DNA of 64,000 bases from Sipunculus nudus. Lineage: Eukaryota; Annelida; Sipuncula; Golfingiida; Sipunculidae. Below are positions 33,931 to 63,920 of this stretch, in pieces. A program made the position numbers and the translations under genes. How positions within the stretch are numbered: the first letter of the stretch is position 1; each line of letters starts with the position of its first letter. The notes under the pieces are model-generated. The model had not been told where the DNA came from. It made no database searches and was given only the letters and a program-made list of their open reading frames with translations. The stretch is taken from positions 44,712,714 through 44,776,713 of the forward strand of contig CM049320.1 in assembly GCA_026874595.1 (NCBI GenBank), in the 5' to 3' direction.

Positions 33931-34017
33931 TCACAAAAGCAAGCCATTCTAGTTCTTTAGCTGATGACACCACATTTAAAATCGAATTAAAAGAGTGCAT
34001 ACACTTAACACGTCTGC

Positions 34018-34435
34018 TAACTAGATGGATGGAAAGTTAGTCCGGCTGACTGAACACGTCCGATGACTAGATAGATGCGAGGTTAGTCCAGCTGACTAAA
34101 CACGCCTACTGACTAGATGGTTGTGAGGTTAGTCCACCTGACTGAACACGTCTGCTGACTAGATGGATGCAAAGTTAGTTTGGCTGACTGAACTCGTCTG
34201 CTGGCTAAATGGATGTGAGGTTAGTCCACCTGACTGAACACGTCTGCTGACTAGATGAATATGAGGTTAGTCTGGCTGACTGAACATTTCCGCTGGCTAT
34301 AGAAGGATGTGAGGTCAGTCCACCTGACTGAACACGTCTGATGACTAGATGGATGTGAGGTTAGTCTGGCTGACTGAACACGTCTGCGGACTAGATGGAT
34401 GTGAGGTTAGTCCGGCTGACTGAACACGACTGGTC
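34018..34435. repeat. 46-bp minisatellite, about nine units
   Basis: Unit GACTAGATGGATGTGAGGTT + AGTCCGGCTGACTGAACACG + TCTGCT, about 46 bp, moderately diverged. It abuts the 41-bp array that follows. Confidence 0.9.
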
Positions 34436-34735
34436 GCTGTATTCGTGTTCGCTTGTCTTTTTTAATCCGGCCGCTCGCTCTACCCTTTTTCGTTTGTCTG
34501 TGTTAATCCGGCCGGTCACTGTCCTCGTTTTCGTTTGTCTGTGTTAATCCGGCCGGTCGCTGTCCTCGTTTTCGTTTGTCTGTGTTAATCCGGCCGGTCG
34601 CTGTCCTCGTTTTAGTTTGTCTGTGTTAATCCGGCCGGTCGCTGTCCTCGTTTTCGTTTGTCTGTGTAAATCCGGCCGGTCGCTGTCCTCGTTTTAGTTT
34701 GTCTGTGTTAATCCGGCCGGTCGCTGTCTTTGTGT
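34436..34735. repeat. 41-bp minisatellite, left block (about seven units)
   Basis: Unit CTGTCCTCGTTTTCGTTTGT + CTGTGTTAATCCGGCCGGTC + G. This left block uses GGCCGGTCG, whereas the main array at 35798-38337 mostly uses GGCCGCTCG or GGCCGCTTG. Confidence 0.92.
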
Positions 34736-35797
34736 TTTTTTCACTTAATCAGAACGGCTTGTTCGGTTAAAATATATTTATTGGTGCTGAACATTGAAAC
34801 AACAATTACTCAAAATACAATACAAATATAATTTTTTAGTATTTAGTATTTTTATTAGATCTTTTTTTTTACTTAAGGCGAAACTACCTCCCAAGTCCAA
34901 GGGAGAACTTAAGTATGAAATAAAGCAGTTCCATCCATACCGTCGAGCAGGTCGTTTTTTGCCAGCGATTTAGTTGAAACACTACTCACGGAAATGCCGG
35001 TAAATTCGTGCACGGCTGTCAGAAGCAGATTTCGCTCGATTTTTTTTTATTTTACTTTTATTGGAGGTTTATCGCCTCCATTTTTTTAATGCTAGCTAAA
35101 CTAACTATAGGCACATATGCAGAAAACTCCATTCCGGTTTGGGACTACATGACAGGGCGGTCTTACGCGGTTCTTCCCATTTTATATCCTGATGTTAACC
35201 AGGCCCGACGACTACTGCACCTGTGGGCCCAGGGTTGGTAGTCGTCCCCACTGCTTGGTCATACCACCGAGGAAACCCCGAAAGGCGCATTTCTGTGTGA
35301 GTTTACACGGCCGTTGGGCACGACCTTTCCATTAAGCATGTAGAGCGCTCACCCTTGTTGGGGCCGACCGTGAAAAAACTCACCGCCTCGGCTGAGATTT
35401 GAACTCACGATCTCCCGGCATTGAGTCCCATGCTCTACCCTTGAGCCACAGAAGCCGGTTCGCTGGACCCTTTTGAGACAGAGTGAATCTATGTCCTGCC
35501 CTGTTAAAGTTCCTATATACTCTTCTTAGAGTGGAAACCTTCCATGTTAAGTTTACTCACGGTTTCCTTCGACAGTTCGTTTTCATTACTCCATGAATCG
35601 AAGTCAAAATGTCCACCCATCTTGTAAAGCAGAAACCAGGAGTCCAGAAACACGGCTCAGAGAAAAAACACAAACTGCCAATGTAACACAAGACCCGGTC
35701 GGTTAGCAAACATACCGACACCCAACCGCCGGCAGACATGCACGGGCAAAGACTTGCGCGTTAGGGATCACCAGCCTGATTAAAGCACAATAACTGT
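34736..35797. other. Sequence interrupting the 41-bp array
   Basis: About 1.06 kb with no 41-bp units, containing a minus-strand tRNA-derived SINE near 35150-35460. The rest is unrecognised. It splits one minisatellite into two blocks. Confidence 0.5.
35150..35460 (-). mobile_element. tRNA-derived SINE
   Basis: The minus strand has a tRNA-like head at about 35456-35387. It reads GGCTTCTGTGGCTCAAGGGT with an A-box-like TGGCTCAAGGGTAGAGC (35431-35449), then a B-box-like GAGTTCAAATCT (35395-35406), about 30 bp apart as in pol III promoters. The anticodon stem does not pair well, so it is not a functional tRNA gene. A ~240-bp body follows toward lower coordinates; its family and 3' end are unclear. 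Confidence 0.6.
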
Positions 35798-38337
35798 TTT
35801 GTTATTGTTTACGTTAATCCGGCCGCTCGCTGTCAGGTGGTCGAATGTCTGTGTTAATCCGGCCCTCGCTGTCCCCGTATTCGTTTGTCTGTGTTTATCC
35901 AGCCGCTCTTTGTCCTCATGTTCGTTAGTCTGTGTTAATCCGGTCACTCGCTGTCTTCGTGGTTGTTTGTCTTTGTTAATCCGGCCGCTCGTTGTCCTCC
36001 TGTTCGTTTGTCTTTGTCAATCCATCCGCTTGTTGTCCTCCTGTTCGTTTGTCAGTGTTAATCCAGCCGCTCGTTGTCCTCATGTTCGTTTGTCTGTGTT
36101 AATCCATCCGCTCGTTGCCCTCGTGTTCGTTTGTCTGTGTTAATCCAGCCGCTCTTTGTCCTCGTGTTCGTTTGTCTGCGTTAATCCGGCCGCTCACTGT
36201 CCTCGTGTTCGTTTGTTTGTGTTAATCCGGTCGCTTGTTGTCCTCGTGTTCGTTTGTCTGTGTTGATCCGGCCGCTTGCTGTCCTCGTGTTCGTTTGTCT
36301 GTGTTAATCCGGCCGCTTGTTGTCCTCGTGTTTGTTTGTCTGTGTTAATCCATCCGCTCGTTGTCCTCCTGTTCGTTTGTGTGTGTTAATCCGGCCGCTC
36401 GTTGTCCTCTTGTTCGTTTGTCTGTGTTAATCCGGCCGCTTGTTGTCCTCGTGTTCGTTTGTCTGTGTTGATCCGGCCGCTTGCTGTCCTTCTATTCCTT
36501 TATCTGTGTTAATTCCGCCGCTCGTTGTCCTCGTGTTCGTTTGTCCGTTTTAAACCAGCAGCTCACTGTTCTTGTTTTCGCTTGTCTGTGTTAATACGGC
36601 CGCTTGTTGTCCTCGTGTTCGTTTGTCTTTGTTAATCCATCCGCTCGTTGCCCTCCTGTTCGTTTTTCAGTGTTAATCCAGCCGCTCGTTGTCCTCATGT
36701 TCGTTTGTCTGTGTTAATCCATCCGCTCGTTGCCCTCATGTTCGTTTGTCTGTGTTAATCCAGCCGCTCTTTGTCCTCCTGTTTGTTTGTCTGCGTTAAT
36801 CAGGCCGCTCGTTGTCCTCGAGTTCGTTTGTCTGTGTTAATCCGGTCGCTTGTTGTCCTCGTGTTCGTTTGTCTGTGTTGATCCGGCCGCTTGCTGTCCT
36901 CGTGTTCGTTTGTCTGTGTTAATCCGGCCGCTTGTTGTCCTCGTGTTTGTTTGTCTGTGTTAATCCATCCGCTCGTTGTCCTCCTGTTCGTTTGTCTGTG
37001 TTAATCCGGCCGCTCGTTGTCCTCTTGTTCGTTTGTCTGTGTTAATCCGGCCGCTTGTTGTCCTCGTGTTCGTTTGTCTGTGTTGATCCGGCCGCTTGCT
37101 GTCCTCCTATTCCTTTATCTGTGTTAATTCCGCCGCTCGTTGTCCTCGTGTTCGTTTGTCCGTTTTAAACCAGCAGCTCACTGTTCTTGTTTTCGCTTGT
37201 CTGTGTTAATACGGCCGCTTGTTGTCCTCGTGTTCGTTTGTCTTTGTTAATCCATCCGCTCGTTGCCCTCCTGTTCGTTTTTCAGTGTTAATCCAGCCGC
37301 TCGTTGTCCTCATGTTCGTTTGTCTGTGTTAATCCATCCGTTCGTTGCCCTCATGTTCGTTTGTCTGTGTTAATCCAGCCGCTCTTTGTCCTCCTGTTTG
37401 TTTGTCTGCGTTAATCAGGCCGCTCGTTGTCCTCGTGTTCGTTTGTCTGTGTTGATCCGGCCGTATGTTGTCCTCGTGTTCGTTTGTCTGTGTTGATCCG
37501 GCCGCTTGCTGTCCTCGTGTTCGTTTGTCTGTGTTAATCCGGCCGCTTGTTGTCCTCGTGCTCGTTTGTCTGTGTTAATCCATCCGCTCGTTGTCCTCCT
37601 GTTCGTTTATCTGTGTTAATTCCGCCGCTCGTTGTCCTTGTGTTCGTTTGTCCGTTTTAATCCAGCCGCTCTTTGTTCTTGTTTTCGCTTGTCTGTGTTA
37701 ATCCGGCCGCTTGTTGTCCTCGTGTTCGTTTGTCTTTGTTAATCCATCCGCTCGTTGTCCTCCTGTTCGTTTGTCTGTGTTAATCCGGCCGCTCGTTGTC
37801 CTCGTGTTCGTTTGTCTGTGTTAATCCGGCCGCTTGTTGTCCTCGTGTTCGTTTGTCTGTGTTGATCCGGCCGCTTGCTGTCCTCGTGTTCGTTTGTCTG
37901 TTAATCCAGCCGCTCGTTGTCCTCGTGTTCGTTTGTCTGTGTTAATCCGGCCGCTTGTTGTCCTCGTGTTCGTTTGTCTGTGTTGATCCGGCCGCTTGCT
38001 GTCCTCGTGTTCGTTTGTCTTTGTTAATCCATCCGCTCGTTGTCCTCCTGTTCGTTTGTCTGTGTTAATCCGGCCGCTCGTTGTCCTCCTGTTCGTTTGT
38101 CTGTGTTAATCCGGCCGCTTGTTGTCCTCCTGTTTGTTTGATTGTGTTGATCCGGCCGCTTGCTGTCCTCGTGTTCGTTTGTCTGTGTTAATCCAGCCGC
38201 TCGTTGTCCTCGTGTTGCTTGTCTGTGTTAATCCCGCCGCTCGTTGTCCTTGATCCGGTCACTCGCCGTCTTCGTGTTTGTTTGTCTTTGTTAATCCGGC
38301 CGCTCGTTGTCCTCGTGTTCGTTTGTCTGTGTTAGAT
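35798..38337. repeat. 41-bp minisatellite, main array (about 61 units) with higher-order structure
   Basis: Unit TTGTCCTCGTGTTCGTTTGT + CTGTGTTAATCCGGCCGCTC + G. Distinctive variants recur at 615 bp (15 x 41): TTGTCCGTTTTAAACCAGCA occurs at 36541 and again at 37156, each with the same neighbouring variants. A weaker third copy lies near 37648 (12 units on). The frame at 35799-36143 is a by-product. Confidence 0.95.
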
Positions 38338-46209: not shown

Positions 46210-46259
46210 TGATGGTAGATGACCTGGTTGTAATGTAGGTTTTTGTTGGTTCCCCCTAG

Positions 46260-46411
46260 GTTTTGGATGTAGGTGACCTGGTTGTGATGCCGGGTGTTGT
46301 GGATTGTCATGTACATGTCAATGAACCGGGAAGGACAGAGTGGGAGGGATTTCAGACAGCGACTAAAGCAGCCGCCGCGGGAGGAGTCACCACCATTGTT
46401 GACATGCCATT
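46260..46411 (+). CDS. ALLN: Allantoinase, second coding exon
   Basis: The acceptor is TTGGTTCCCCCTAG (AG at 46258-46259) and the donor is GTAAGTGT at 46412. The 152-bp exon encodes residues 46-95 plus two bases of codon 96. It reads [20 protein letters not shown], then [20 protein letters not shown], then [10 protein letters not shown] and the split Leu. HVH (residues 62 and 64) is the first metal-binding HxH of the amidohydrolase barrel, and [10 protein letters not shown] and the AAAAGGVTT block are diagnostic for allantoinase. The frame is continuous with exon 1 (phase 0) and with exon 3 (phase 2). The exon's last 11 bases and donor are the start of a 67-bp minisatellite that follows directly. 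Confidence 0.95.
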
Positions 46412-47313
46412 GTAAGTGTAATATCAGCTCATGTAATGACAACACAACAAGAGTCACTCTCTGTGTAGACATGTCATTGCAAGTGCAATATCAGACATTG
46501 TAAGTACAACACAGCAAGAGTAACTGTCAGCGTGGACATTCGATTGTAAGTGTAATATCAGACACTGTAAGGACAACACAACAAGAGTCACTCTCAGTGT
46601 AGACATGCCATTGTAAGTGTAATATCAGACACTTTAAGAGTCACTCTTAGTGTAGACATGCCATTGTAAGTGTTATATTAGCCCCTGTAAGGACAACACA
46701 ACAAGAGTCACTCTCATTGTAGACATGCCATTGTAAGTGTAATATCAGCCACTGTAAGGACAATACAACTAGAGTCACTCTCAGTGTAAGCATGCGATTG
46801 TAAGTGTAATATCAGCCCCTGTAAGGACAACCCAACAGAATCACTCTCAGTGTAGACATGCCATTGTAAGTGTAATATCAGCTACTGTAAGGACAACACA
46901 ACAAGAGTCACTCTCAGGGTAGACATGCCATTGTAAATGTAATATCAATCCCTGTAAGGACAACACAACAAGAGTAAATGTAAATGTAGACATTTGATTG
47001 TAAGTGTAATATCAGCCCTTGTAAGTACAACCCAACAGAGTCACTCTCAGTGTAGACATGCCATTGTAAGTGTAATGTCAGACACTGTAATGACAACACA
47101 ACCAGAGTGTACTCTCAGTGTAGATATGCCATTATAAGTGTAATATCAGCCCCTGAAAGGACAACACAACAAGAGTAACTGTAAGTGTAGTCTAGCAATT
47201 CTTAGTGTAATATCAGCTACTGTAAGGAAAATACAACAAGAGTAAGTGTCAGTGTAGACATGCCATTGGAAGTGTAATTTCAGACACTGTAAGGACAACA
47301 CTACAAGAATAAT
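46401..47313. repeat. 67-bp minisatellite starting inside allantoinase exon 2
   Basis: Unit GACATGCCATTGTAAGTGTA + ATATCAGCCCCTGTAAGGAC + AACACAACAAGAGTCACTCT + CAGTGTA. Starts are at 46401, 46468, 46535 and 46602, then continue with some shortened units, about 14 in all. The first 11 bases of the first unit are exon sequence (Asp-Met-Pro-Leu codons) and the next bases are the authentic splice donor, so most units carry a copy of that 5' splice site. The array resumes at 51562 after an inserted retroelement. Confidence 0.95.
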
Positions 47314-47314
47314 G

Positions 47315-47458
47315 TGATGTATTTACGGCACGATCCTCAATGGTATCAGCTGTAAATTTACGGATATCTCTCGTTCTCAGATATAGCCTCCTTCCGAAAT
47401 AATGGACTTGTAAGTTGGCTTGTTTTTCTTGACTTTTGCTAGTCAATATTTGACGACC
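47315..47458 (+). repeat. Left inverted repeat of the Gypsy-type insertion
   Basis: Begins TGATGTATTTACGGCACGAT and ends near GACTTTTGCTAGTCAATATT. It matches the reverse complement of 51421-51561 at roughly three in four positions by eye (for example TGATGTTTTAACGGTACGAT and GACTTTTGCTTGTCAATATC). Confidence 0.8.
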
Positions 47459-50400
47459 TGGCATCGAGCGAGTTACGGAGATACGCTTATACAACGCTTA
47501 TCACATCTGCCGCTATAGCGAACCAGCTAATTTTTACTGACACGCGCAGCATGGATTTTGATACTTTTTCAGAGCCACAAAATTTGCCATCGGTCTGGGT
47601 CTGCGAGACTACATTCCTATCTCATGATCCGGGTACGAGAGTCTGTACTCACCAGAGTAAACAAACAATATGGTAGCTCGGATGGCACTTTGCCGACGTT
47701 GTCTGGCAAGATTGGTCAACATATAGTCAACGTTTATAAATCTGCTTCGTCCTAAACGATATTATGGACGAAATGGACACTAAACGCCGCGTTATACGTC
47801 CTTCTGGGGAAGGTGAAGAAACATTCAACCTCATTCGTTGTCTTGTTGCACCCGGCGCCAAAGGCGACTCATGAGTTAATGAACTGTGTACATTACTCGA
47901 GAAACACTTCGAACCAAAACCAAACATTACGCTTCAACGTTTCCTGTTATATTCCTGTCAACGTAAACCTAACCAGTCGGTTACCGATGAAAGACTTAGC
48001 TTGACTGTGTGATTTTGACAGTACCCCCGAGGGTGTGTCTTTGACGCCTCACTTAGTATTAGAGGAAAACCTCCGTGATAGACTGGTTTGTCGCATTCAT
48101 AGCTATCATACAGCGCCGATTGTTACATGAACAAAACCTAATATTCCATAAAGCACTTGACATTGCTCTTTCAGTGGAGTTAGCTCGAGAAAACACAACC
48201 AAATTGGAACTTGCCACAGGCCCAGGGGTCCAACCAAAACCTAATGTAAACAAACTGTCACACAAAGCAAGGCCCTAGAAACCAGCAAAGAAGCTGTCTC
48301 AGTGTTTCCGATGTGGCAAAAACAACTAGTCACAAGCAGAATGCAGAATTAAAGACCCTATATGTCGTTTTTGGTCCAAGAAAGGCCACATTGAAGTGAT
48401 TTGTTTTGCTAATTAAAAGGCAAACAAGTCAGTCAGACAATCACAACCTAAACACCTTGTCCTTCAGGGGGAGGATGAGCAGGAAGAGCCTGAACCAACC
48501 ACAGGATCAGTGTATGGACTGTTTATTGTACATGGCATACGTACGCAGCCACTGGTGACCTGTCTTACAGTTGAAGGTAGGCCATAGAAAATTGAAATAG
48601 GCACAGGAGCTGCTGTCTCTATTATAAGTGGAAGAACTGGCTAACCGCTTAGGCCAGCCAGTCAGTCAAAGAAAACCATAGATAAACTGCGTACGTACAC
48701 AGGAGAAGAACTTTCAGTTACATGAGTACTTGTTGTCAAAGTGGAATCACATGGGAAACTGGACTCCCTCTGATGATTGCGCCAGGCGATGGACCTAGGG
48801 TCCTTGGTCGTAACTGGATCAGTCAGATCAAGCTCAACGGGCAGGAGATACATCAACTGTGTAACATTACTAAAACACCCACAAAATCATTACAGAATGT
48901 TTTAGATAAACACGGTGACCTCTTTACGGAGTCGCAGGAAGCTATAAGGGTGTTTCAGCACGCATATATGTGGGAGATGGAGCCACTCCACAGTTCTTCA
49001 AAGCTAGACCAGTGCCTTAAGCCATGGAGGGTCTGGTGGATAATTAACTTGATAGACTGTTAACCCAGAATATCATTGAACCAGTGCAGTACTTTGACAG
49101 GGCTGCACCAGCTGTTCCTATGGTCAAAGGTGACAAAACCGAATGCCTGTGTGGCGATTACAAAGTTACAGTCATCCGGGTAGCAAAGCTGGACCGTTAT
49201 CGAATACCAGAGATTGCGGATGTTTGTGTCCAGTTGGGAAACGGTTCAATCTATAGCAAGTTAGACCTTAAACATTATATGAACAGATTGAACTTGCTCC
49301 TGAAAGCAGAAAATTTGTTACAGTAAACACTTACCGCGGACTCTTTACATACAAACGTCTGACCTATGAGGTTTTCTCTGCACCAGGGATTTTTTCAGCG
49401 AGTGGTAGACTCTCTTATCAAAGACATCCCAGACACCATGGGATACCTAGACGATATACTGTTAACTGGTGTCACAGATGAGGAACACTTGCGTACTATG
49501 AATGCACTTATGGAGCGTCTCGAGGAAGCAAAGTGCCGGTTATGGAAGTAAAAATGTAAGTTTTTTTGCAAACAGAGGTCGAGTATCTAGGACATACATT
49601 AGATGCTGTCGGAATCCGTCCAGCAGGGAAAGCCGTCACCGTCATACAAGAGGCCCCAGCACCTACCAACGTGTCTGAACTTTGGGTATACCTTGGCTTG
49701 ATTAACCACTACGCTCGATTCTTGCCGGACTTGCAGAATTGCTGGCACCATTACACGCTTTGATGAAAGGAGATGCAGAGTGGAGATGGGGAAAGCGTGA
49801 GAAGGCCACCTTCCGTAAGACAAAAGAACTGTTGAACTCGCCACGTTAAATGGAACATTTTGCCCCCGCAAACCAACTGGTATTCACATGTGATGCCTTA
49901 CCATACGGTGTCGGTGCCATACTATCTCTCACAGTGAAACCTATAGCCTGTCCCTCCCGTAAGCTATCACCAGCTGGGAAGAACTATTCTACACTTGATA
50001 AGATAGGCCTGGTAGTCATAGTAGGCCTTAAGAACTTTCATCAGTATCTGTGGGACCGACCATTCGTGACAGGCCATAAGCTGATGATCGGTATCTTCGG
50101 AGGGCTCACAGATGGCCTCACCTAGACTATGAGAAGTGCACTCACTTTGTCAGCATATGAATATACCATAAAGCGCCGCCCTGAGCATTCCATACCGCAC
50201 ACCGATGACCTGAGTAGGCTCCACTGCACGAGAATACGACTCTACAGGTTCCTTACCAGGGGACACAATCCTTGTGATGGATCATTCAGACAGATCTCCT
50301 GTTAATGCTAAGGATGTTTAACTGGGAACTGAGAGGGACCCTCTGTTGTCACAAGTGATGAAAATTGTACAAGCGGGGTTCCCCAGGAAAGTGAATGATG

Positions 50401-51420
50401 AGGCCCTCCTTCCATTCTGTAATTCGAACTGAGTGTACAGGATGAATGTTTGATGTGGGGTGGCTGTGTAATCATACCACCAAACAGTCGTGCCACATTT
50501 CTCGAAGACCTCCACAGTACCCGCCCAGGCATGGTCCGCAAGAAGGCACTGGCAAGAAGCATCATGCGGTGGCTCTATGGATGCAGAAATAGAACAAACA
50601 GTAAAACGCTGTGACGAATGTCAACTGAGTCGTCACCAACCTGCTCGGGCTCTGCTACAGCCCTGGCCATTCCCAGAACGCCCCTGGTCACGAATCCACA
50701 TATATTACGCCGGTCCGTTACAGGGGAAAATGTTCCTGATCAGTGACGACGCCCACACAAAGTGGATTGGGGCACACATAAAATGTGGTTCTACTGCCTT
50801 AGTAACCGTTAACAAGCTGCGCTTAGCATTTAGCACACATGGTACTCCGGATATCATAGTGTCGGACAATGCAACCGCATTTACGAGCAGTGAATTTCAG
50901 TACTTCTGCCAAGCAAACGGCATAAAACACATAACCAGTGCACCCCACCATCCTTCCACCAATGGACTAGATGAACGTTCTGTCTGTACGGTTAAAGTAG
51001 GCCTTACACGGTTGGGGAAGGGAAGCTGGGGATGAACCTCGCACGCCATTTGTTCACCTGTCGTATCACTCTGCACCCAACTACCGGAGTGTCGCCCCCG
51101 GAATTGTTCTGGGTCGAATGCCGAAGTCGCGATTGCATCTAGTACAACCAGGCCTTGCTAGGAGAGTGCAAGACAAACAGTCATAACAGAAATAACATTA
51201 TGCCAAAAGTGACACTCGTTATGCATTCCATGATCCATATAAAAAGTTATATAACATGCAACAGTATAAATCACAATTTACAAGGACTCCGTGAACATTT
51301 CATAAATGGTGATTATTTAGTATTACAAAGATTCTGACGTTGTTTCATCCTGTTCATTCAATTACATATCACCTGATTTGGACTGAAGAAGGGGAGGATA
51401 GTCAGGAAGAGCCAAAATCA

Positions 51421-51561
51421 GGTCAGATATTGACAAGCAAAAGTCAAGACAAACAATGCTGGCACACATCCGTTAATCCAGAACAAGCCTAAATTTGAGA
51501 GCGGGAGAAACAATGTAAATTTAGAGATTATACCAATGGGGATCGTACCGTTAAAACATCA
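51421..51561 (-). repeat. Right inverted repeat of the Gypsy-type insertion
   Basis: Reverse-complement partner of 47315-47458. A purine-rich GAAGAAGGGGAGGA lies just before it (about 51384-51397), where the polypurine tract before a 3' LTR would be expected. Confidence 0.8.
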
Positions 51562-52208
51562 TATTTTATTATCAATGTGTAGACATACCATTGTAAATGT
51601 AATATCAGCCCCTGTAAGGACAACACAACAAGAGTAATTATCAGTGTAGACATGCCATTGTAAGTTTAATATCAGTCCCCGTAAGAACAACACAACAAGA
51701 GGAAATGTCAGTGTAGGCATGCCAGTGTAAGTGTCATATCAGCCCCTGTAAGGAAAACACAACAACAGACACTATCAGTGTAGACATGCCATTGAAAGTG
51801 TAATATCAGAGTAACTGTAAGTACATGTACAAAAATGTTCACTACAAATTCAAACCTATTACTGGTCCTTAACAATGAAACTATTGTCACTTTGGACATG
51901 CCTCCATAAGTACACTGTCTTTTAGTGAGTATACAATGTTTGTACTTGGCGGTTAACCATTAAACAAAAGTTACAACCAGTGTTTACATGCCACTACAAG
52001 TACACTGTCTGTAAGTGAGTACCCTTGACACAAGATTCAATGCCAGTATAGACATGTCACAATAATTACAATATATGCAGTGGCCATTAACCATGAAACA
52101 TGAGTCACTATCAGTGTAGACATGTTACTGTATATACAATGTCTGTAAGTAACCATGAACAATTAAACAGCAGTTTCTACTAGTGAAGACATGTTATTGT
52201 ATGTCACC
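51562..52208. repeat. 67-bp minisatellite, continued, becoming degenerate
   Basis: Units with GACATACCATTGTAAATGTA (51582), GACATGCCATTGTAAG (about 51649), then more diverged ones near 51715, 51784, 51895, 51990, 52055, 52120 and 52187. Same orientation as the block at 46401-47313. Confidence 0.85.
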
Positions 52209-52989
52209 CGATAAGAATTACCCTTACCGGTGCCCTAGGAAAAAGGCTGCCTTTATTAAGTGAGAGACCGCGTTGTCTTTGGGTTAACGTGGTAAAGTAG
52301 AGATGGTGTGGTTTATGATGGCACACTCATCATATATGCATTCAGGTACACAATAAAACACACGGCAGTGGCTAATCAACAAGGAATATATTTATTAAAA
52401 TAAAATTACAGAATTCAAAACCACCTTTTAGATGGGCGTTTTCAGCCTGTTACGCCTTACACCACATAAAATAAACTGGTGGTACACTAAATAAAATGCT
52501 AGTAAAACACAGAGTCCGCTTGAACAGTATCTCCTGAACTGGAAATACTGGACACCGACTGGCGGCACAGGATCCCGACTGGCGGCATTCTACTCCGACT
52601 GTTGGCACGGGACCCCGGTACTGGACCGCGAATGGTGACACTGAAGACTTCCAGACTGTCCAAACACTGAGTATGCGGCCCTCTTAAATGCATCTTTACC
52701 CTGGAGGCACATCTACTAGTATATTCATAAGACTTATACAAAGCCTGGGACTGCTTTGTTACTAAGGCTCATTTATATTCATTAGCACGCTGAATACTAT
52801 ATAGGCTGAAAACAATTTCCCTTCTATAATGGCATATCTCAAAGCGTCGCACTCCTAGACCGGTCTAAATTCCACTATTGTCTCACAATACAATGACGCT
52901 GACCGGATCCCTGGCCTATTTGCAACACATACTAAGATACAGCTAACCCGAGAAATAAAAGTGAAACATGAATAAACAAACGATACGAT
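52209..52989. other. Unidentified insert in the minisatellite
   Basis: About 780 bp without the 67-bp unit. It has three short units CCGACTGGCGGCACAGGAT-like at 52553-52620. No domain or clear terminal repeat recognised. Confidence 0.35.
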
Positions 52990-53210
52990 TCATTTCATGA
53001 CACTTTATATACTAAGTCTGTAAATGTCCAGGAAACAAGATTCACTACCAGTGTAGGCATACATAGAGTAACATGTCCGTAGGTGACCATCTATGATGAA
53101 ACGCGAATCACTGCCGGATTAGAAGGTTATTGTAAGTACAATGTGTCTAAGTGAAAATGAACCATGAAACAAGTGTAGACATACATGTCACTGTAAGTAC
53201 AAATAAGTTC
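52990..53210. repeat. Oldest visible units of the 67-bp minisatellite
   Basis: Diverged units with CACTACCAGTGTAGGCATAC, AAGTACAATGTGTCTAAGTG and GTAGACATACATGTCACTGT. The array therefore stretches to within 400 bp of exon 3. Confidence 0.5.
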
Positions 53211-53612: not shown

Positions 53613-53730
53613 AAACTCTGTCCCTTCCACCACATCAGTTGAAGCCTTGAACATTAAAATCCACCATGTCAACAAGCTCAGCATGTATGTTGATGTGGCA
53701 CTGTGGGGAGGTGTTGTTCCGGGAAATCAA
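53613..53730 (+). CDS. ALLN: Allantoinase, third coding exon
   Basis: Acceptor TGATTTATTTCAG (AG at 53611-53612), donor GTAAGTATG at 53731. The 118-bp exon completes Leu96 and encodes residues 97-135. It reads NSVPSTTSVEALNIKIHHVN then KLSMYVDVALWGGVVPGNQ, ending in phase 0. Joined to exon 2 it gives the DMPLNS.P.TT block and the VDVA.WGGV.PGN block, both hallmarks of allantoinase. The carboxylated lysine, later metal ligands and C-terminus lie in further exons, which I could not find in the remaining 10 kb. The window thus holds about 135 of the usual 450-480 residues. Confidence 0.95.
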
Positions 53731-60095: not shown

Positions 60096-60795
60096 TTGCT
60101 ATCAGAATAAATGCACAATACACCAAGCTGTCAGAATAAATGCACAATACGCCAAGCTGTCAGAATAAATGCACAATACGCCAAGCTGTCAGAATAAATG
60201 CACAATACGCCAAGCTGTCAGAATAAATGCACAATACGTCAAGCTGTCAGAATAAAAACACAATACGCCAAGCTGTCAGAATAAATGCACAATACGCCAA
60301 GCTGTCAGAATAAATGCACAATACGTCAAGCTGTCAGAATAAAAGCACAATACGTCAAGCTGTCAGAATAAATGCACAATACGCCAAGCTGTCAGAATAA
60401 ATGCACAATACGCCAAGCTGTCAGAATAAATGCACAATATGCCAAGCTGTCAGAATAAAAGCGCAACACGCCAAGCTGTCAGAATAAATGCACAAAACGC
60501 CAAGCTGTCAGAATAAATGCACCATACGCCAAGCTGTCAGAATAAATGCACGATACGCCAAGCTGTCAGAATAAATGCACAATATGCCAAGCTGTCAGAA
60601 TAATAGCGCAACACGCCAAGCTGTCAGAATAAATGCACAAAACGCCAAGCTGTCAGAATAAATGCACAATACGCCAAGCTGTCAGAATAAATGCACGATA
60701 CGCCAAGCTGTCAGAATAAATGCACAATATGCCAAGCTGTCAGAATAAAAGTGCAACACGCCAAGCTGCCAGAATAAATACACAATACATCAAGC
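60096..60795. repeat. 29-bp minisatellite, about 24 units, with 145-bp higher order
   Basis: Unit GCCAAGCTGTCAGAATAAAT + GCACAATAC. The variant ATATGCCAAGCTGTCAGAAT followed by AAAAGCGCAACAC recurs with unit starts at 60441, 60586 and 60731, exactly 145 bp (5 units) apart. Confidence 0.95.
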
Positions 60796-62900: not shown

Positions 62901-63371
62901 ACAACTGAACCCCGGCAGTTCAAAGGATAAAAAAACATTTACAGGCGCACATAAAGGTGATATATCGATTTAATTTGATACATAAAAAGTTTATTTCTAT
63001 ATATAAATACAAGATTGTTTCTCTATCGCAAAACAAGCAGTGATAATTCATGTTACAGGTCCCTCCATGTACGGCAAGGTGAACTCTCACCGCTAGACGG
63101 TCGGACATATCACAGATAAATGGAGTCCGTACGTGGCGGACTAGCATCAACCAAACGCCGTTGCTAAGAAAACAGGTTACAGCTCGAAAAAGAAACGAAC
63201 ACAAAAGGCGCCAGCGTTCTGCACTGGTCGCTAAATCTTTCTGAGATGCCGATATCAAATAGACCAGCTGCTACTCCTAACTTACATAAAATAAATATAA
63301 TCTGCCATATAATTACCCGATCACAATCCACATACATAAATAAAAAGTGACAGTCCTCTGGTGACACTCCA

Positions 63372-63920
63372 TGAGAATGGATGCCTGCACCATGATAACG
63401 GTTGCCTGCACCATGATAACGGTTGCCTCCTCCATGGTAACGGGCGACTCCTCCATGATAACGGGCGACTCCTCCATGATAACGGGCGACTCCTCCATGA
63501 TAACGGTTGCCTCCTCCATGATAACGGTTGCCTCCTCCATGATAACGGGCGACTCCTCCATGATAACGGGCGACTCCTCCATGATAACGGTTGCCTCCTC
63601 CATGATAACGGTTGCCTCCTCCATGGTAACGGTTGCCTCCTCCATGGTAACGGTTGCCTCCTCCATGGTAACGGTTGCCTCCTCCATGGTAACGGTTGCC
63701 TCCTCCATGATAACGGGCGACTCCTCCATGATAACGGGCGACTCCTCCATGATAACGGGCGACTCCTCCATGATAACGGTTGCCTCCTCCATGATAATGG
63801 TTGCCTCCTCCATGATTACGGTTGCGTCCTCCATGATAATGAGCGCCTCCTCCATGATAATGGGCGCCTCCCCCATGATAACGGTTGTCTCCTACATGAA
63901 AATGGATGACCCCTCCATGT
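63372..63920. repeat. 21-bp minisatellite, about 25 units
   Basis: Unit CTCCTCCATGATAACGGTTG + C, with a second main variant where GGTTGC is GGGCGAC. Because 21 is a multiple of 3, long frames stay open on both strands (63361-63909 +, 63371-63985 +, 63313-63876 -) with seven-residue repeats such as MEEATVI and MEESPVI. These are the longest frames in the window but are probably not genes. Confidence 0.93.

What the first reader, a model, noticed from the sequence alone, without database searches (positions are those of the whole stretch)
46390..53210. Minisatellite born from the exon 2/intron 2 junction of allantoinase, multiplying the splice donor
The 67-bp unit begins with the last 11 bases of exon 2 and the authentic donor (GACATGCCATT|GTAAGTGTA). 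About 14 tandem units follow directly, and more lie after an inserted retroelement out to about 53.2 kb. Many units keep a consensus-like GTAAGTG, and each also has an acceptor-like AATATCAG a few bases on. Units near the exon are homogeneous and distant ones are degenerate. The array could provide decoy donors; read-through past the true donor meets TAA at once (TTG TAA). How the cell selects the correct donor is an open question.
Basis: partly seen in the sequence, partly recalled or inferred. Interest (0 to 1): 0.75.

Follow-up and report, generated by a model that had tools for sequence, protein, structure and literature searches.

The report
Splice-junction minisatellite in an allantoinase gene
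A short repeat that begins inside a coding exon and copies the cell's cut-here signal many times along the next intron is real, but it is one of several such arrays in this animal's genome and belongs to a kind already described in amphioxus under the name mirages.

Summary
A 67-bp array starts with the last 11 exonic bases and the donor at 46411/46412, runs 46397-47312, resumes after a retroelement at 51578-51832, and continues in degenerate form to about 53.2 kb. No other place with it was found in the genome. The junction is sound: exons 2 and 3 join in frame through the conserved DMPLNS. Of 17 downstream units, 10 keep GTAAGT, and 9 pair with U1 at least as well as the real donor.

It is not unique as a kind. 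Of six donors checked in this gene, a second is duplicated too. In 114 donors of two other families, 6 recur just downstream, against 41 of 684 intronic and 1 of 444 exonic windows. A myosin-XVIII-like intron holds 22 further exact donor copies. A myosin acceptor is repeated about six times. Such arrays are known in amphioxus as "mirages", reported not to disturb splicing (PMC3087553, PMC3902484; passages).

Best reading: a neutral mirage; the exon-adjacent donor is chosen by exon context. What may be new is how common they are, in an unnamed and probably non-cephalochordate genome.

The parts
46260..46411 (+).
   Evidence: TIGR03178 exon match; exon 2+3 peptide matches TIGR03178 positions 41-128, E 2.1e-41, 142 bits for this part of the protein; PDB allantoinases; frame
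46412..46417 (+). Authentic donor GTAAGT; exon-side context ATT is weak
   Evidence: U1 duplex -7.3 kcal/mol; score 6.66 on a donor matrix fitted to 114 donors of this genome, above 19% of them
46397..47312 (+). Proximal 67-bp array, 14 units including the junction unit, starting inside the exon
47311..51565 (+). Inserted Ty3/gypsy-like retroelement, degenerate, with terminal inverted repeats (47311-47454 against 51422-51565); no long terminal direct repeats were listed; it splits the array
   Evidence: the repeat finder; the left-end query also matches the right end on the other strand, 75%; gag/pol-like content is my own reading, not searched
51578..51832 (+). Array continued: 4 more units
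51833..52204 (+). Degenerate array, about five units with anchors 66-90 bp apart
   Evidence: alignment score 64, shuffle maximum 18 in 300; anchors, spacing
52205..53009 (.). Second, unidentified insertion inside the degenerate array
   Evidence: interruption of similarity; limits set by eye
53010..53201 (+). Last degenerate array remnants, including ATTGTAAGTAC at 53129
   Evidence: score 26.5, shuffle maximum 24.5 in 300
53613..53730 (+). Exon 3, which rejoins the frame as DMP-L-NS

Best explanation
This is a junction-spanning minisatellite, the kind called a mirage. A 67-bp stretch, made of the last 11-15 exonic bases, the donor and about 52 intronic bases, was duplicated in tandem. It then expanded inside the intron by slippage or unequal exchange, drifted, and was later split by two insertions. 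The exon copy is held in place by the protein. The downstream copies are unselected passengers. Splicing most likely keeps using the exon-adjacent donor because that site pairs with the upstream acceptor and exonic signals across the 152-nt exon (exon definition, recalled knowledge). Transcripts from a downstream copy would carry TAA immediately after the leucine codon and should be removed. Shown here: the anatomy, the junction origin, no second place found for the family, near-equal strength of many copies, and recurrence of the same kind of array elsewhere in the genome. Inferred: the expansion mechanism, neutrality, and donor choice.
For: The array is continuous with the exon and shares its last 11 bases exactly in 9 of 17 downstream units. 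No other place with the family was found in G000. The protein motif at the junction is conserved and the join is in frame. The donor is not better conserved across units than other parts of the unit: 22 of 62 six-column windows are at least as conserved, so there is no sign of selection to keep or remove decoys. Nine of 17 units pair with U1 at least as well as the real donor. Genome sample: donor-spanning windows recur downstream in 6 of 114, intronic windows in 41 of 684 (Fisher p 1.0) and exonic windows in 1 of 444 (donor against exon p 0.0004), so duplications across a donor are tolerated about as well as intronic ones. Published amphioxus mirages are reported not to disturb splicing (PMC3087553; PMC3902484; passages).
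Against: No RNA evidence for this organism. The 41 intronic control hits come from only 14 of 114 regions, so the rate comparison has little power and its windows are not independent. At a stricter threshold the donor count falls to 3 of 114 against 37 of 684 (p 0.25), which would leave room for mild selection against donor copies. Two of the six donor hits are uncertain: L092 (donor assignment) and L108 (3 exonic bases only). Exonic and donor columns match the consensus somewhat more often than the rest (91-92% against 84%), although window ranking does not make this exceptional.
Confidence: 0.85

Rival explanations
1. The downstream donors are used: a fraction of transcripts extend exon 2 into the array and are degraded because of the TAA, so array length tunes allantoinase output.
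For: Nine of 17 units equal or exceed the real donor in U1 pairing, and the real donor scores above only 19% of 114 sampled donors. [quoted passage not shown] 1995, title seen in reference lists only).
Against: Amphioxus mirages are reported not to yield aberrant mRNAs (PMC3902484). No sign that units keep donors better than other columns.
Confidence: 0.12
2. The array arose independently in the intron, and its likeness to the exon end is chance or later gene conversion.
For: Degenerate distal units share features with each other that the exon-adjacent units lack, for example GTAAGTACAATGTC (my reading).
Against: The 11-base exact exonic match is in register at the array edge, repeated in 9 of 17 units, and the exact 18-mer was found nowhere else in 1.43 Gb. 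The same arrangement recurs at other junctions.
Confidence: 0.03
3. The array is kept for a function in splicing, such as a U1 sponge, recursive splicing steps, or protection of a long intron.
For: Each unit holds a donor-like and an AG-ending element close together.
Against: The AG element of the first unit lacks a pyrimidine tract. No excess conservation of donors. Rate across donors is close to the intronic background in the sample.
Confidence: 0.05

Closest known systems
Amphioxus 'mirages' (Adh, globins BflGb6 and BflGb9, troponin C, PGBD5)
   [quoted passage not shown] units of 10-160 bp; several genes per genome (PMC3087553, PMC3902484; passages read)
   Different: This array has about 18 clear units plus degenerate ones over 6.8 kb including insertions, against 6 and 3 in the two BflGb6 haplotypes (Adh counts not seen). 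The host is an unnamed 1.43 Gb genome, probably not a cephalochordate. Splicing and length polymorphism were examined there and not here.
Minisatellite with multiple splice donors in a human interferon-induced transcript (6-16/IFI6, gene name recalled)
   Same: A minisatellite that multiplies splice donors (title of Turri, Cuin and Porter 1995, NAR 23:1854, seen only in reference lists; paper not held)
   Different: There the donors are said to be provided to the transcript; here use is unknown.
Intron gain by tandem duplication of proto-splice sites (Rogers type)
   Same: Tandem duplication around a splice site; the amphioxus globin paper proposes mirages as a route (PMC3087553); a potato case is reported (PMC4974935, search listing only)
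   Different: No new intron is seen here; copies lie inside an existing intron.
Variable internal tandem repeats at exon-intron boundaries of human segmental duplicates
   Same: Minisatellites at exon-intron boundaries that can change gene structure (PMC2812944, passages read)
   Different: Those cases concern recent paralogues, with novel introns or with the repeat retained in the exon.

Membership tests
Mirage (junction-spanning minisatellite) | Tandem array whose unit includes exonic bases and the splice site, starting at the exon edge | tested here: met
Mirage (junction-spanning minisatellite) | Occurs at both donor and acceptor boundaries and in several genes of the genome | tested here: met
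   Donors: allantoinase, 2 of 6 checked, and L083. Acceptors: L026, L066/L131
Mirage (junction-spanning minisatellite) | Regular splicing is undisturbed | not testable with these tools
   no RNA data
Mirage (junction-spanning minisatellite) | Copy number unstable between haplotypes | not testable with these tools
   one assembly only
Mirage (junction-spanning minisatellite) | Host is a cephalochordate (the only hosts named in the passages read) | tested here: inconclusive
   Genome 1.43 Gb; best PDB match of a muscle myosin exon is 3i5f (squid, recalled) with scallop entries (recalled) close behind, but vertebrate Myosin-6 is only 1.1 bits lower; a bacterial protein at 38% identity to a Spirochaetia MAG and 35% to Cetobacterium; no hemocyanin match, uninformative because nothing rang in the controls either
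Donor-providing minisatellite (human 6-16 type) | Several copies of the donor are used in transcripts | not testable with these tools
   no RNA data
Intron gain by tandem duplication | A duplicated AGGT pair bounds a newly gained intron | not tested
   age of this intron was not compared in relatives

The most novel reading that the evidence does not exclude
In this genome, junction-spanning arrays are common and nearly neutral: 3 to 6 of 114 sampled donors (by strictness) have a local copy of themselves, with exonic flank, in the next 400 intronic bases, close to the intronic background. The spliceosome here would then routinely pass over exact copies of its own site, showing that the donor sequence and its nearest flank do not decide the site. 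This would be a widespread mirage landscape outside cephalochordates and a ready natural experiment on splice-site choice and intron growth.
Probability: 0.5. Interest if true: 0.6.

Novelty: new member of a known kind. Interest (0 to 1): 0.45.

Why it matters
Arrays of exact donor (and acceptor) copies beside the authentic site ask, in a natural gene, what singles out a splice site when local sequence cannot. If they are as frequent as sampled here, one genome holds many independent cases with different copy numbers, spacings and decay, so that rules of site choice and the growth of introns by junction duplication could be tested statistically rather than with single minigenes.

Tried and rejected
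Selection on decoy donors: tested by column conservation in the unit; donor windows are not exceptional. Higher-order repeat of three units: lag-3 identity 0.834 against a mean of 0.815, permutation p 0.066, so not claimed, although TRF lists a 200-bp period at 46637-47308. A second, upstream duplication at the 5' end of exon 2 (46215-46246 against 46269-46300): 42 of 5000 random placements score as high, weak. Array family elsewhere in the genome: none found. Organism: tried through a myosin match in the PDB, a bacterial contig gene and a molluscan hemocyanin model; only a suspicion of a bivalve mollusc remains. A first null for the exon 5' copy was spoiled by tandem arrays and overlap and was redone. 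The exon 2/3 join printed was in the wrong frame and was redone correctly. U1 energies and matrix scores disagree on a few units (u16 and u17), so both are given. Not followed: the unlocated exons of the gene and the second insertion.

Sample limits: of the 63 TCP-1 matches listed I used 49, dropping 11 rows on contigs that look bacterial and 3 others (two of C11, one of C3:73093755). Of 75 myosin matches listed (65 of 198 candidates were scored) I used the first 71. 114 of 120 donors and 115 of 120 acceptors were assigned. Donors were assigned by a matrix, which favours strong sites. Some sampled regions overlap. The first donor count (6 of 114 against 26 of 456 at threshold 14) was repeated with more control windows and a spanning rule, which is the one quoted.

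Papers: PMC3087553, PMC3902484, PMC2572611, PMC3618361, PMC2812944 and PMC4039745 were seen as passages only; PMC4974935 as search listing only; Turri 1995 and Canestro 2002 were not held. No report of such arrays in bivalves was noticed in the listings of searches, which cover open-licence papers and show only the first rows in some cases.

Full report
What is there. The window lies at G000:C15:44712714-44776713 of a 1.43 Gb genome. Tandem Repeats Finder reports period 67 at 46397-46638, 46636-47308 and 51568-51809. A profile of the unit finds 14 units at 46397-47312 and 4 at 51578-51832. The first unit starts inside the exon: its first four bases and GACATGCCATT are exonic, followed by the donor GTAAGTG at 46412. 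The alignment of all 18 units is. Of the 17 that follow the junction, 9 keep the 11 exonic bases, 9 keep GTAAGTG and 10 keep GTAAGT. Further degenerate array lies at 51833-52204 (score 64; the maximum of 300 shuffles is 18) and 53010-53201 (26.5; maximum 24.5 of 300).

The gene. TIGR03178 (allantoinase) matches this exon and others on the same contig up to 44884428, so the gene is over 125 kb long if these belong together. The exon 2 plus exon 3 peptide matches TIGR03178 at positions 41-128 with E 2.1e-41, and PDB allantoinases (3hm7, E 2.1e-25), where the residues at the junction align as DMPLNS. The acceptor TTTCAG|AAACTCTG completes TT|A AAC TCT, L-N-S, and the whole join is open. The five other exon regions that I examined (exon 3 in the window, and the four) have open frames and flanking AG/GT; two later exons also join in frame. 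The first exon and the part between HMM positions 179 and 228 were not located.

Origin. The 18-mer GACATGCCATTGTAAGTG occurs six times in the genome, all here. A two-unit query finds 11 matches, all here (the tool warns that common words are skipped and only the best candidates are scored). Together with the conserved protein motif, this makes the exon the source. Decay is not a smooth gradient: within the 18 units, identity to consensus does not fall with distance (Spearman -0.14, p 0.57). The step comes after 51.83 kb.

Decoy strength. U1 pairing energy is -7.3 kcal/mol for the real donor. Eight downstream units are identical and one is -8.3. A donor matrix fitted to 114 donors of this genome gives the real donor 6.66, above 19% of them; nine downstream units equal it. 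The real donor is thus not marked out by its own strength. The donor columns are not exceptionally conserved among units (22 of 62 six-column windows do as well), so I see no selection for or against decoys. The AATATCAG element has 7 of 15 pyrimidines before it, against 12 and 10 for the true acceptors.

It is not alone. Of six donors of the same gene put to the same test, two recur just downstream (score 27.5 each) and four do not (6.5-7). The second is the exon at C15:44853468-44853611, which ends ...TTCAGTTTG|GTAAGTCC. It is followed by a 49-bp duplicate (TRF: 2.0 copies, 91% matches) that carries its last 18 or so exonic bases and a GC in place of GT. I then sampled 120 exon matches of two unrelated families, TCP-1 and myosin heads. 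For 114 assigned donors, a 30-base window across the junction recurs in the next 400 bases in 6. For intronic windows it is 41 of 684, and for exonic windows 1 of 444. Fisher p is 1.0 for donor against intron and 0.0004 for donor against exon (threshold 14). At threshold 12 the counts are 7, 45 and 4; at 16 they are 3, 37 and 1 (donor against intron p 0.25). The intronic hits come from 14 of 114 regions, so the windows are not independent. Of the six, L083 is firm. L107 and L094 are convincing by reading, though the exact donor of L107 has two candidates and neither was joined to its next exon. L072 is short (11 exonic bases). L092 has an uncertain donor. L108 shares three exonic bases. At acceptors, 2 of 115 reach 14 (L026 and L032), against 11 of 453 controls. 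A further acceptor case, L066/L131, lies in the sampled DNA but its exon was not among the 71 myosin rows used.

Two clear cases. L083/L129: a myosin-XVIII-like exon (name recalled) ends ACTGACAG|GTCAGT. A 36-bp unit (95% matches) fills most of the 1138-bp intron, with 22 further CTGACAG|GTCAGT. Joining to the next exon gives SILTGDKLSAIFTLLEAFG in frame. L066/L131: the acceptor TTACAG|ATGAAGGATGAGAGGAACTACCACAT of a myosin exon is preceded by about five copies in an 82-bp array, each with AG and exon start. Here the copies come before the true site.

What is known. Amphioxus 'mirages' are minisatellite-like tandem repeats that span exon-intron boundaries at either end of an intron. [quoted passage not shown] PMC3902484, passage). 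A human case with multiple donors is known by title. The present array meets the structural definition. Splicing and length instability could not be tested.

How it most likely works. The array is a passenger. The exon-adjacent donor is used because it is the one that lies at exon distance from the upstream acceptor and exonic signals (inference from exon definition, recalled). Any use of a copy adds TAA at once and should be degraded (inference). The similar donor and intronic rates suggest that evolution in this genome hardly notices such copies; with 114 donors this is an estimate, not a proof.

Host. A muscle myosin exon matches squid and scallop structures slightly better than vertebrate ones (organism names recalled; the margin over Myosin-6 is 1.1 bits), and one bacterial contig gene resembles a Spirochaetia MAG at 38% identity, with Cetobacterium at 35%. 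I suspect a bivalve mollusc. If so, mirages are not confined to cephalochordates; this is not shown.

Verdict. Real, correctly read as born from the junction, already of a known kind, and interesting mainly because such arrays seem common here.

Noticed in passing
L007:993-1090 (C15:44853592-44853689): A second donor of the same gene is spanned by a 49-bp tandem duplication (91%); the copy has GC instead of GT. The nearest decoy of the 67-bp array (46479) also has GC; two cases only.
   Followed up: yes
L083 and L129 (C7:52357806-52358805, minus strand): A myosin-XVIII-like exon end is repeated in a 36-bp array that fills most of a 1138-bp intron, with 22 further exact donor copies.
   Followed up: yes
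L066:723-1199 and L131 (C9): An acceptor and the first exonic bases of a myosin exon are repeated about six times in an 82-bp array; decoy acceptors precede the true one.
   Followed up: partly
L026:252-414 (C1): A TCP-1 exon acceptor is spanned by a 60-bp array of 2.8 copies.
   Followed up: partly
window 47311-51565: A degenerate gypsy-like retroelement with terminal inverted repeats of about 145 bp (two aligned stretches) and no long terminal direct repeats listed; related ends at two places on C5 and one on C2 at 72-77% identity. Whether those copies also have opposite arms is unknown: the 3-kb pieces scanned are shorter than the element.
   Followed up: partly
window 52205-53009: A second insertion in the degenerate array, unidentified.
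   Followed up: no
window 46215-46246 and 46269-46300: The 5' end of exon 2 has a partial copy just upstream in intron 1; 42 of 5000 random placements score as high.
   Followed up: partly
window 34003-38334, 60098-60795, 63367-63919: Other minisatellites with 41-46, 29 and 21 bp units, up to about 60 copies; the region is rich in arrays.
   Followed up: no
G000, several contigs between C61 and C99, and C118: Contigs that look bacterial, with near-identical copies of the same genes on many of them, perhaps several strains of one associate; one gene is 38% identical to a Spirochaetia MAG. C118 carries two adjacent allantoinase matches over the family cut-off.
   Followed up: partly
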